The notes below the pieces were generated by a model. The model was given only the letters and a program-made list of their open reading frames with translations. It searched no databases and was not told the DNA's origin. Of a stretch of DNA of 64,000 bases, positions 24,991 to 37,318 are shown in pieces. A program made the position numbers and the translations under genes. Position 1 is the stretch's first letter; the number at the start of each line of letters is the position of its first letter. Source of the DNA: an uncultured Pseudoxanthomonas sp. (lineage in GTDB: Bacteria > Pseudomonadota > Gammaproteobacteria > Xanthomonadales > Xanthomonadaceae). Location of the stretch: NCBI GenBank assembly GCA_946479745.1, contig CAMLGZ010000013.1:1-64000 (forward strand), in the 5' to 3' direction.

Positions 24991-25286
24991 CAGCCGTGAC
25001 GCTGCTGCGCCTGGGCAAAGGCAGCCAGTTGCTCCGGGGTGGCGTCGCGCTGGAATTTCGCCTTCCATTCGGCGAACGGCATGCCGTACACGCGTTCGCG
25101 CGCCTCATCCTTGCTCATGGGCCGGCCGGCGGCTTCGGCGGCCTCGCGGTACCAGTCGGACAGGCAGTTGCGGCAGAAGCCGGCCAGGATCATCAGATCG
25201 ATGTTCTGCACGTCGCTGCGTTCGACGTTGAGATGCCGCAGCAGGCGGCGGAAGGCGGCGGCTTCGAGTTCGGTGGTGTCGGACAT
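24990..25286 (-). CDS. DUF1244-family protein
   Basis: A 98-residue protein matching DUF1244: NIDLMILAGFCRNCLSDWYREAAE and MSKDEARERVYGMPFAEWKAKFQ are the family core, with the CRNC pair likely to bind metal or act in redox. Function is unknown. A TTG at 25313 gives nine more residues, but ATG 25286 (MSDTTELEA) is preferred. Its promoter must lie in the structured region shared with folD. Coupled to the downstream hydrolase. Confidence 0.85.
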   Translation of the reverse strand: MSDTTELEAAAFRRLLRHLNVERSDVQNIDLMILAGFCRNCLSDWYREAAEAAGRPMSKDEARERVYGMPFAEWKAKFQRDATPEQLAAFAQAQQRHG

Positions 25287-25332
25287 GGCGGAATCGGGGA
25301 CAATAGGGGCCAACGACTTTACACCCGCGCCC

Positions 25333-25598
25333 AGGGCCTATTAACGCTATTGGGAGGGTCACGTTGCTTGTCCCGGGCCGTCAGGCGTTCGTGCGTGGCG
25401 CCGAGACAGGCCGGCCGCCTGTTCAAGCCGCGCGCGGGCGTCTGGCGGCCTGGGACAAGCAACCCGAAGGGCCACCGCTGAGTGCACGTGGAGCGGCGTC
25501 CTCATTCGGTCGTGTATCGACATACACTTCTTCATTCCTCCTTGCTCCACGCGCACTCAGCGGTGGCGTGACCCCTCCCAATAGCGTTAATAGGCCCT
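25333..25598. repeat. 266-bp three-armed palindromic element ending at the folD start codon
   Basis: Outer stem A: 25333-25358 pairs perfectly with 25573-25598 (26 bp), then TCACG/CGTGA after one bulged C. Stem B: 25364-25387 with 25439-25462, 24 positions, the three exceptions all G.U pairs in plus-strand RNA; inside it 25392-25399/25427-25434 and 25405-25411/25417-25423 also pair with wobbles. Stem C: 25472-25494 with 25544-25566, 22 of 23, holding GTGTAT-CGAC-ATACAC at 25512-25527. B and C are joined by CCCGAAGGG (25463-25471). Arms abut without spare bases, so almost all of the element is paired, as in a T-shaped or cloverleaf fold. The right arm contains the only likely folD ribosome-binding bases (AGG at 25592). 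Confidence 0.9.
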
Positions 25599-26483
25599 AT
25601 GACCCCAGCTTCCCCCAGCGCCCACACCGCCCGCATCCTCGATGGCCGCCGCATCGCCGAGAATCTGCTCGACGAACTCAAGGCCAAGGTCGACGCCCGC
25701 GTCGCCGCGGGCCTGCCGCGCCCGGGCCTGGCGGTAGTGCTGGTCGGGGGCGACCCGGCTTCCACCGTGTACGTGCGCAACAAGCGCCGTGCGGCGGAAA
25801 AGGTCGGTATCGAGGCTTTCGACCACGACTTGCCGGCCGGCACGTCCGAGCACGCGCTGCTGGCGCTGATCGACAAGCTCAATGCCGACCCCAAGGTCCA
25901 CGGCATCCTGGTGCAGCTGCCGCTGCCTGGCATTCCCGACGCCAGCCGCCTGATCCATCGCATCGACCCGCGCAAGGACGTGGACGGCTTCCACCCGGAA
26001 AACGTCGGCCACCTGGCCCTGCGCGAGTTCGGCCTGCGTCCGTGCACGCCGCGCGGCATCACCACCTTGCTGGGCTACACCGACAGGCCGGTGCGCGGGC
26101 AGAACGCGACCATCGTCGGCGTCAGCAACCACGTGGGCCGCCCGATGGCGCTGGAGCTGCTGATCGCGGGCTGCACGGTGACCAGCTGCCACAAATTCAC
26201 CCCCGCTCCAGTGCTGGAGGCGCGGGTGCGCGACGCGGACATCCTGGTGGTGGCCGCGGGCCGTCCGGGCTTGATTCCCGGGGAATGGGTCAAACCCGGG
26301 TCGGTGGTCATCGACGTGGGCATCAATCGCCTGGAAGACGGCAGCCTGGTCGGCGATGTGGGTTTCGACGCCGCCGCCAAGCGCGCCAGCTGGATCACCC
26401 CGGTCCCGGGCGGGGTAGGGCCCATGACCGTGGCCACGCTGATGCAGAACACGTTGGAAGCCGCCGAGGCCGCTGCTGCTTAA
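25599..26483 (+). CDS. folD: Bifunctional methylene-THF dehydrogenase/methenyl-THF cyclohydrolase
   Basis: FolD interconverts 5,10-methylene-THF and 10-formyl-THF with NADP. The 294 residues include the catalytic block [18 protein letters not shown] (Tyr and Lys near 57-60), [12 protein letters not shown] near 97, [14 protein letters not shown] near 126 and [16 protein letters not shown] near 174. The ATG at 25599 is the first codon after the three-armed palindrome, with no strong Shine-Dalgarno outside the stem. A C-rich inverted repeat follows the stop. Confidence 0.95.
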
Positions 26484-28172
<1,689 letters not shown>

Positions 28173-28208
28173 TCTGCGCGAATAGAAAAAGTCGCCAAAT
28201 AAAGAAGT

Positions 28209-28304
28209 CGTCATTCCCGCGAAGGCGGGAACCTAGTGACTTTAAGCCTTTCTCAGGAAGCAATAGAGCAAAGTCACTGGGTTCCCGCCTTCGCGGGAAT
28301 GACG
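28209..28304. repeat. 35-bp inverted repeats between guaB and guaA
   Basis: 28209-28243 and 28270-28304 are inverted copies, 34 of 35 positions (the exception is a G.U pair), around a 26-base loop. Each arm holds a smaller palindrome CCCGCGAAGGCGGG. Arms of this CATTCCCGCGAAGGCGGGAA type are a widely dispersed proteobacterial repeat. It would form a very stable hairpin in a guaB-guaA transcript. Confidence 0.9.
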
Positions 28305-28348
28305 ATGTTGTTTTTCACTCGTTGGCTTGAAGCAGTGATCGCGATTCC

Positions 28349-29963: not shown

Positions 29964-29996
29964 CCGTTCGTGGTGAGCTTGTCGAACCACGCTCTT
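29964..29996 (+). repeat. 33-bp repeat, left copy flanking the GIY-YIG segment
   Basis: Begins CCGTTCGTGGTGAGCTTGTC and is the inverse of 30330-30362 with one mismatch in 33. The motif is a familiar dispersed repeat in gammaproteobacteria. Confidence 0.85.
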
Positions 29997-30019
29997 GGCC
30001 CTGAGCCGGAAGCGTAACG

Positions 30020-30382
30020 ATGTCTTTCTGGGTTTACATGCTTAAATGCGCGGATGGCTCGTATTACACGGGACACACCGACAATCTCGAAAAGCGAGTT
30101 GGCCAGCATCATGCCGGCGACGTACCGAGTTGCTATACGTTCAAGCGTCGACCTTTGACCATGGTTTGGAGTCAGGATTTTCCAAGTCGAATCGAAGCGC
30201 TAGAGTCAGAGATGCAGGTGAAGCGCTGGAGCAGGGCTAAGAAAGAAGCGTTGATCGAGGGCGATTGGCAGAAGGTCAGCGAGCTGGCTAGAAACAGGAG
30301 CGACACAGTTGATGTCGAACTACTTCGCGAAGAGCGTGGTTCGACAGGCTCACCACGAACGGGTTCTGGGGAGGGGGCGCCA
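30020..30382 (+). CDS. GIY-YIG nuclease domain read in frame into tadA (N-terminal part of a 279-residue fusion)
   Basis: A small GIY-YIG protein of the UPF0213/YhbQ-like group: WVYMLKCADGSYYTGHTDNLEKRV (residues 4-27) carries the VYM..YTG form of the motif, and the catalytic Glu lies in EALESEMQVKRWSR near 60. There is no stop after the domain: a 33-bp repeat (30330-30362) codes the linker EERGSTGSPRTG and reading continues into TadA to 30859. The domain thus may be made only as a fusion unless a stop was lost recently. Partners of this family are not well known; some act on DNA nicks. Confidence 0.75.
30330..30362 (-). repeat. 33-bp repeat, right copy, inside the GIY-YIG-TadA linker
   Basis: Inverse copy of 29964-29996 (32 of 33). 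It sits inside the open frame and removes any stop codon between the two domains. Confidence 0.85.
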
Positions 30383-32003: not shown

Positions 32004-32011
32004 GAATCCTT

Positions 32012-32102
32012 GTAGGAGCGACGTAAGTCGCGAAACGATTTCCGAACGATCGGATTTGGTCGAGCATGGCCCGGAGACCTTCGCGACTTGCGTCGCTCCT
32101 AC
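32012..32102. repeat. REP-type inverted repeat between orn and mscS
   Basis: GTAGGAGCGACGTAAGTCGC begins the left arm (32012-32034); 32080-32102 is its inverse, 22 of 23. A small palindrome TCCGAACGATCGGA sits in the loop. The right arm supplies the TAG stop of mscS. It probably serves as a terminator for both convergent genes. Confidence 0.85.
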
Positions 32103-33021
32103 GCGGAGGCCGCCACATCGCCGTCATCGGCGACCGAGCGGGTGATGATCTCGGTCAGCGGTGTGCCATCGGCGTTGTGGTGGTAGACATGCAGGTCGCG
32201 TTGCGGGTATGGGATATTCAGGCCATTGCCGATGATATCGGTACGCACCGACTCGGTGACCTGACTTTTGGCATCGCCGAAATCCGCATTGTTCGCAAAG
32301 GCGAACAACTTGAGTTCCACGCTGCTTTCGCCCAGGTTGACCACCTGCACGAACGGCGGTGGATCCTTGAGGATCAATGAATTGGCGCGTGCGATATCCA
32401 GCAGGATCTGCTGCGCGCGCTTGAGGTCGTCGTCGTAGCCTATGCCCACGGCGATTTCCATGCGGCGGGTCGGCAGCGAGCTGTAATTGATGATCGGAGC
32501 CGTGGTCACTTCGCTGTTGGGAAGGATGATCAGACGCTGGTCGAAAGCGCGCAGCCGGGTCTGGAATATGCGGACTTCCAACACCACGCCCTCCTGTCCG
32601 GCGGCGATCACATGGTCGCCGACGCGGAACGGGCGCAATACGATCAGCATGACGCCCGACGCGATGTTGGATAGCGAATCCTTCAGCGCCAAGCCCACCG
32701 CCAGGCCGGCGGCGCCCAACACCGCGAGCATCGAAGTCGGGTTGACTCCCAGTGAGGTCAGGGCCGTCACCAGCACCAGCACCATCATCGCGGCGTAGCT
32801 GGTCCTGCGCAGGAAGCCGGACAGCGTGGAATCGACGTGGGCGCGGCCCAACACGCGCTCCAGGCCCAGGCTCAGCCTCCTGGCCAGCCACATGCCGATC
32901 AGGAAGATGACCGCCGCGGCCAGCAGTTTCAGGCCCCAGGTTTCCAGCAACTGCAACCAGTCGATGCCCCGGATGTCCCTGACGATGTCGTCCGGCGTCG
33001 CGACGGGCTCCTTCACCTGCA

Positions 33022-37119: not shown

Positions 37120-37195
37120 GGGGCCATAGCTCAGCTGGGAGAGCGCCTGCATGGCATGCAGGAGGTCGGCGGTTCGATCCCGCCTGGCTCCACCA
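37120..37195 (+). tRNA. tRNA-Ala (GGC anticodon)
   Basis: A full cloverleaf of 76 bases with encoded CCA. The acceptor stem GGGGCCA/TGGCTCC contains the G3.U70 pair that identifies alanine tRNAs. The anticodon arm CCTGC-ATGGCAT-GCAGG gives GGC, and the T arm has GGTTCGATCCC. Confidence 0.97.
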
Positions 37196-37242
37196 ACTCG
37201 CGTACCGACATGCCTCGTCGCACGTGAATGGATCTAGTCATT

Positions 37243-37318
37243 GTCCCCATCGTCTAGAGGCCTAGGACACCACCCTTTCACGGTGGACACCGGGGTTCGA
37301 ATCCCCGTGGGGACGCCA
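37243..37318 (+). tRNA. tRNA-Glu (TTC anticodon)
   Basis: Cloverleaf of 76 bases with encoded CCA. The acceptor pairs GTCCCCA with TGGGGAC, the anticodon arm CCACC-CTTTCAC-GGTGG gives TTC, and the T arm is CGGGGTTCGAATCCCCG. A lower-GC region starts directly behind it. Confidence 0.97.

What the first reader, a model, noticed from the sequence alone, without database searches (positions are those of the whole stretch)
25333..25598. Three-armed, almost fully paired palindromic element that ends exactly at the folD start codon
Every part of 266 bases belongs to a stem: outer arms 25333-25363/25567-25598 (31 pairs, one bulge), arm B 25364-25387/25439-25462 and arm C 25472-25494/25544-25566, which abut the outer stem with no spare bases; CCCGAAGGG joins them. 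In arm B and its inner stems all six departures from perfect pairing are G.U in plus-strand RNA, which hints at selection on the RNA rather than chance. The only likely ribosome-binding bases of folD are inside the outer stem, so folding should limit folD translation, and opening could switch it on. The same T-shaped layout is seen in replication hairpins of some mobile DNA, so a mobile palindromic element, a transposon end pair, or a cis-acting leader RNA are all open. No coding capacity and no transposase.
Basis: partly seen in the sequence, partly recalled or inferred. Interest (0 to 1): 0.85.

Follow-up and report, generated by a model that had tools for sequence, protein, structure and literature searches.

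The report
Three-armed hairpin transposon before folD
The 266-base folded stretch in front of folD is a small passenger transposon that landed there after this bacterium split from its nearest known relatives; it belongs to a widespread, apparently undescribed family whose three-armed fold is kept while its letters change.

Summary
The structure is real: RNA fold -205.5 kcal/mol against -116.7 ± 5.6 for shuffles. It is not a folD regulator. The two closest folD relatives found (94% and 93% identity) lack it and carry the empty site CCCTAGATG. Relatives of the element sit at unrelated loci in several genomes, share the end repeat TAGGGCCTGTTAAC and have the same three-armed fold; 33 of 41 copies have TA at both ends. 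In 41 full-length copies, 65 of 88 pairs show two-sided compensatory change. The same end repeat bounds an 809-818 bp IS5-family insertion sequence (7 copies). A second subfamily shares its end repeat with another IS5-family element, 861 bp. An arm-B covariance model matches in 78 of 338 genomes of the order, with varied end repeats. Conclusion: a non-autonomous IS5-family element (MITE) with an unusual, selected internal fold. Arm B is more stable on one strand in 41 of 41 and then 28 of 28 copies, arm C on the other (41 of 41). What the fold does is unknown. Rfam has no gathering-score match, and eight literature searches found no description.

The parts
25333..25598 (+). whole three-armed element (called + when arm B precedes arm C)
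   Evidence: fold and shuffles; absent at this site in relatives; family members
25334..25355 (+). left terminal inverted repeat GGGCCTATTAACGCTATTGGGA (family form GGGCCTGTTAACGCTATTGGGA)
25576..25597 (-). right terminal inverted repeat
25333..25363 (+). outer arm A, 5' side
25567..25598 (+). outer arm A, 3' side, one bulge
25363..25463 (+). arm B hairpin, stem 25363-25399/25427-25463 with 7 G.U pairs
   Evidence: model R1 match 99.5 bits
25463..25471 (+). linker CCCGAAGGG, can form a tiny hairpin
25472..25566 (+). arm C hairpin with a pyrimidine-rich internal loop on this strand
25598..25599 (.). TA at the right end, as in the family; the left end has CA instead of TA
   Evidence: empty site CCCTAGATG in relatives
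25290..25305 (+). GGAATCGGGGACAATA, a motif kept upstream of folD in 24 of 30 relatives; possibly the folD promoter (inference). It lies upstream of the insertion
25599..26483 (+). folD, reading frame intact
   Evidence: relatives

Best explanation
The stretch is one copy of a family of non-autonomous transposable elements (MITE type) of about 265-300 bp. Step 1 (shown by comparison): it inserted at a CTAG site just before the folD start codon after this lineage split from its two closest relatives found. Step 2 (inferred from shared ends and target): it moves by using the transposase of IS5-family insertion sequences that have the same end repeat, TAGGGCCTGTTAAC. Step 3 (shown): across the family the three arms are rebuilt with new letters while pairing is kept, so the fold itself is maintained. 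Step 4 (inferred): the fold is selected in a single-stranded form, most simply RNA made by read-through from neighbouring genes; it may help the element to be tolerated, or to move. At folD it lies between a conserved upstream motif and the start codon, so it probably forms the 5' leader of the mRNA; its effect on folD is unknown and probably incidental.
For: Empty site in both closest relatives and a second empty site for another copy, GGTCTAGGGCCC in G221 against GGTC-TA[element]-TA-GCGC in G361. 33 of 41 copies have TA at both ends and 21 of 41 have CTA...TAG. Exact end repeat in 52 of 390 genomes of the family, in pairs spaced as elements or as an 809-818 bp insertion sequence; 5 of 7 such insertion sequences have CTA...TAG. 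Its two ORFs match DUF4096 and DDE_Tnp_1; the second passes the NCBIfam IS5 cut-off, the first is just under it (102.1 against 110). BLAST of three element copies against the seven insertion sequences, listed for two of them in the part of the output shown, gave only matches within the end repeat, 14-23 bp. Second subfamily (G161) and an 861 bp IS5-family element share TAGAGCGTGTTATG. Covariation: 95.1% of cells paired, 65 of 88 pairs changed on both sides, score 0.523 against 0.185 ± 0.006 shuffled (0 of 500) and 0.07-0.10 when slid.
Against: No transposition was observed. The window copy's junctions are not a clean TA duplication: T is missing on the left and GA on the right relative to the relatives' CCCTAGATG. 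G161, rich in copies, and G189 have no DUF4096 match, and the ten DUF4096 loci found in six other host genomes have no matching end repeat; for G048 a partner is seen only as contig ends. Whether the six genomes holding the 809-818 bp insertion sequence also hold the element was not tested. The structure used for counting came from the same alignment, and the shuffle control does not keep relatedness. Strand evidence conflicts between arms B and C. Palindrome correction during replication could make compensatory changes without selection, though it does not predict the G.U excess in arm B.
Confidence: 0.9

Rival explanations
1. A cis-acting folD leader RNA (switch or attenuator) that controls folD translation.
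For: It ends at the folD ATG and would sequester the region before the start codon; it lies downstream of a conserved upstream motif.
Against: Absent before folD in 30 of 30 fetched relatives by end repeat, including the two closest; copies lie at unrelated loci in other genomes.
Confidence: 0.03
2. The pairing is kept not by selection but by a DNA process: hairpin-templated correction (strand switching) turns imperfect palindromes into perfect ones in this MITE family.
For: Correction would give compensatory changes and long perfect stems in each copy. Single-copy departures in arm B are even, 9 G.U and 8 A.C.
Against: It predicts equal G.U and A.C on a given strand, but arm B has 199 against 18 cells, 23 against 1 columns, and 121 against 9 in 28 further loci. 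Loop and linker letters are also conserved between subfamilies. The contrast of shared and single-copy types is weak (20:4 against 9:8, Fisher P = 0.045).
Confidence: 0.2
3. The element is an RNA-level device for its neighbours: inserted at stop codons it forms the 3' end of mRNAs (stabiliser, processing site or terminator), and is kept for that reason, as proposed for ERIC or Correia elements.
For: Of 36 open frames running into 31 copies, 21 (at 20 copies) stop exactly at the junction TAG; among the 18 with gene-like codon GC pattern, 17 do. Known MITEs alter mRNA decay (passages of PMC10969869 and PMC2229807).
Against: No orientation preference: 10 genes in the direction of the element, 11 opposite. 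The stop-codon location is explained by the CTAG target, rare elsewhere (28 against 224 expected in the window). No T-run terminator was found at folD.
Confidence: 0.2

Closest known systems
Bacterial MITEs with TA ends and folded transcripts: Correia/NEMIS, ERIC, RUP (passages of PMC2229807)
   Same: Small, non-coding, terminal inverted repeats, TA at the ends, transcript predicted to be highly base-paired; some alter mRNA decay.
   Different: That review says repeats other than CIR form one long stem loop without arms or linker. Here three covarying arms plus a linker hairpin, about 265 bp, IS5-family ends, several distinct end repeats on one internal module.
CIR repeats of Caulobacter/Brucella (passage of PMC2229807)
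   Same: Two long stem-loop arms joined by a linker.
   Different: CIR lacks a terminal inverted repeat in that review's table; here an outer stem encloses the two arms.
QMITE1/QMITE2 of Coxiella (passages of PMC5896051)
   Same: MITEs with very stable palindromic transcripts.
   Different: Other sequence and host; direct repeats there are 2-4 bp (QMITE1, software prediction) or 7-9 bp (QMITE2), not TA; no three-armed fold is described in the passages seen.
IS5-family insertion sequences
   Same: End repeat and CTAG target.
   Different: The element has no transposase and only the ends are alike.
Hairpin telomeres / parvovirus-type T-shaped ends (recalled, not from a call)
   Same: T- or Y-shaped folded outline.
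   Different: This one is an internal chromosomal insertion with insertion-sequence ends; no replication protein was sought or seen next to it.

Membership tests
MITE (non-autonomous transposable element) | short, no transposase of its own | tested here: met
   266 bp in the window, no transposase frame; 41 aligned copies mostly 263-302 bp
MITE (non-autonomous transposable element) | terminal inverted repeats shared with an autonomous element | tested here: met
   TAGGGCCTGTTAAC on 7 insertion-sequence copies; TAGAGCGTGTTATG on the 861 bp element
MITE (non-autonomous transposable element) | several copies at unrelated loci, empty sites in relatives | tested here: met
   empty sites
MITE (non-autonomous transposable element) | target-site duplication | tested here: met
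   TA at both ends in 33 of 41 copies, consistent with one TA in the empty sites; the window copy itself is imperfect on the left
MITE (non-autonomous transposable element) | moved in trans by the partner transposase | not testable with these tools
   needs a transposition assay
IS5-family partner | IS5-type transposase between the same ends | tested here: met
   DUF4096 and DDE_Tnp_1; NF033580 above cut-off for the second ORF and for the 861 bp element's protein, just under for the first ORF alone
cis-regulatory folD leader RNA | conserved before folD in relatives | tested here: not met
   0 of 30 folD upstream regions carry the end repeat
known Rfam family | match at gathering score | tested here: not met
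   none at the element nor in 7 loci with relatives; below-threshold hits only to two plant/animal-type microRNA precursor models
REP/BIME repeats | 20-40 bp palindromes tagged GTAG or CGTC | tested here: not met
   length and ends differ; definition from the abstract of PMC3733652 in the listing

The most novel reading that the evidence does not exclude
An order-wide family of structured single-stranded (probably RNA) modules that spreads by wearing the end repeats of several different IS5-type insertion sequences: the B-linker-C module is one conserved, strand-specific functional fold that has been fitted with many end repeats and acts on its own spread or on its host in a strand-dependent way.
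Probability: 0.35. Interest if true: 0.8.

Novelty: new variant of a known kind. Interest (0 to 1): 0.6.

Why it matters
MITEs are usually read as worn-down insertion sequences with simple hairpins. Here the interior looks maintained: compensatory change in all three arms, one-sided wobble pairs, conserved linker and loop letters, and many end repeats around one fold. If so, a bacterial MITE carries a selected structure, and the question of what a non-coding passenger element gains from its own fold becomes testable in a simple assay. It also warns that a striking structured leader beside one gene can be an insertion.

Tried and rejected
Plasmid and phage collections: the folD region matched only the neighbouring DUF1244 gene on plasmids, and weak 26-base phage hits are chance; another family copy gave no match in either. 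IMG/VR exact scans of two end-repeat strings: none. BLAST of the element in five relatives gave only short weak matches. Ten DUF4096 loci in host genomes: no matching ends. An apparent flip of arm B in 11 loci was rejected: exactly the model hits on the minus strand had been delivered unturned. Promoter and terminator scan of 25200-25700: none.

Rows dropped or mended: A1 held L204 in the wrong direction; and A2 use it turned. A2 (41 rows) leaves out short, broken or one-ended copies (L117, L201-L203, L206, L209, L210, L216, L218, L248, L250, L256-L258 and solo ends). Model R1 used 27 of the 41. One search used 28 of 30 loci, leaving out L329 and L333, whose genomes are in A2; L330 is also from a genome in A2. 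The orientation count in my notebook (11/10) was by locus side; the recount by element direction is 10/11.

Against the strand argument: (25 copies, pairing not assumed) arm B has 136 G.U, 28 A.C and 87 other mismatches; arm C 51, 56 and 245 with its loop included. Tandem G.A pairs explain arm C's preference for the minus strand in many copies (74 of 93 two-by-two loops), but 8 of 41 copies, the window's included, show none in that fold.

Literature: eight searches of an open-access library found no description; the three papers with a 12-base match to an end repeat were seen as listings only, on other subjects. ISfinder was not available.

Full report
What is there. The window holds a 266-base stretch, 25333-25598, that folds into an outer stem enclosing two hairpin arms joined by CCCGAAGGG. 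RNA folding gives -205.5 kcal/mol against -116.7 ± 5.6 for 200 shuffles, none as stable; DNA parameters give the same picture. The first 26 outer pairs are perfect; arm B has 30 Watson-Crick and 7 G.U pairs over 37; arm C has 22 pairs and one A.C over 23. The stretch ends one base before the ATG of an intact folD.

It is an insertion. Using folD as bait I searched 395 genomes of the family. The two closest (G361, 94%; G221, 93%) have ...ACACCCGCGCCCTAGATGACCCC where the window has ...ACACCCGCGCCC, then the element, then ATGACCCC. None of the 30 fetched folD upstream regions holds the end repeat. A second copy shows the same: G361 has C-TA-[element]-TA-G where G221 has CTAG. The window junction is slightly eroded: relative to a TA duplication at CTAG, T is missing on the left and GA on the right. 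The motif GGAATCGGGGACAATA upstream of folD is kept in 24 of 30 relatives. If it is the promoter (inference), the element lies in the leader.

It is a family. The end repeat GGGCCTATTAACGCTATTGGGAGGG, with up to 3 mismatches, occurs in 7 of 395 family genomes, repeatedly as facing pairs about 265-298 bases apart. The family form is TAGGGCCTGTTAACGCTATTGGGA; exact TAGGGCCTGTTAAC occurs in 52 of 390 genomes. I read and folded the paired copies; the full-length ones show the same three arms. Of 41 aligned copies, 33 have TA at both ends and 21 have CTA...TAG. Shortened and end-only remnants are also common.

It has likely helpers. Seven copies of an 809-818 bp insertion sequence from six genomes have TAGGGCCTGTTAAC at both ends, five of them with CTA...TAG. 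It has two ORFs in different frames that match DUF4096 and DDE_Tnp_1; the second is above and the first just below the cut-off of an NCBIfam IS5 model. Only the ends resemble the element: matches of 14-23 bases in the BLAST output shown. In G161 a second subfamily with TAGAGCGTGTTATG ends has the same architecture, including CCCGAAGGG in several copies. An 861 bp IS5-family element shares that end; 9 loci gave copies of that length and 6 of these an intact 268-276 aa frame, and its end occurs in 31 of 390 genomes. Against this, G161 and G189 have no DUF4096 match, and the ten such loci in six other host genomes lack the ends. A partner within the same genome is seen only for G048, as contig ends.

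The fold is maintained. On the 41-copy alignment with the RNAalifold structure, 95.1% of cells pair and 65 of 88 pairs have two-sided changes. The covariation score is 0.523 against 0.185 ± 0.006 in shuffles and 0.07-0.10 when slid. Relatedness inflates the shuffle contrast and the structure came from the same data, so the slide control and the number of pairs carry the weight.

Strand signals. In arm B, G.U cells outnumber A.C 199 to 18, in 23 columns against 1; outer arm 49 to 20; arm C stem 37 to 22. Arm B folds better on the plus strand in 41 of 41 copies and in 28 of 28 further loci, with 121 G.U to 9 A.C. A caveat is that those further loci were found with a plus-strand model. Arm C folds better on the minus strand in 41 of 41, partly because its loop becomes tandem G.A pairs there. 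Whole copies are more stable on the plus strand in 34 of 41. Selection on one strand explains arm B, but the two arms disagree and I leave that open.

Spread. Of the 30 best loci, 28 have paired ends at element distance (18, 10). Most ends begin like AGRGCCTG but then differ (TTAAC, TTCATGATC, TTTATGACC, TCGTCATG, CCAATGCG and others).

Where it lands. Of 36 open frames running into 31 copies, 21 end exactly at the junction TAG; among 18 with a gene-like codon GC pattern, 17 do. Directions are 10 with and 11 against the element. CTAG is rare in this DNA (28 against 224 expected), and insertion there rebuilds TAG, so landing on stop codons is nearly harmless. The folD copy is an exception, landing before a start codon.

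Known or new. Reviews seen in passages describe bacterial MITEs with TA ends and folded transcripts, including effects on mRNA decay (PMC10969869, PMC2229807; also PMC5896051, and PMC2267715). Rfam has no gathering-score match. Eight searches of an open-access library found no description. I file it as a new variant of a known kind: a MITE family with a three-armed covarying fold and several end repeats.

Noticed in passing
L305:112-1072 (G097): An IS5-type copy with this family's end repeat carries a nested insert of about 143 bp with other ends (GAGTGGCTAACAAAAC) and an inner stem resembling arm B.
   Followed up: partly
linker of L116, L120, L228, L253: Four of 41 aligned copies have an extra small hairpin (CCCCGTACTTGATACGGGG type) in the linker; L307-L309 carry another, shorter extension.
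   Followed up: no
arm C, minus strand, many copies: Serial tandem G.A pairs in the apical part (74 of 93 two-by-two loops in 41 copies; 8 copies show none).
   Followed up: partly
L165:5633-5684, L209:2978-3019, L256-L258, L318:79-124: Remnants of 42-54 bases consisting of little more than the two end repeats.
   Followed up: no
window 28208-28305: Inverted repeat of 36 bases, 97% complementary, after the 553-aa ORF downstream of folD.
   Followed up: no
window 32007-32107 and 29964-30362: Further long inverted repeats (28 and 36 bases).
   Followed up: no
window 37120-37315: Two tRNA genes close together; the window's CTAG sites are dense around 37-39 kb.
   Followed up: no
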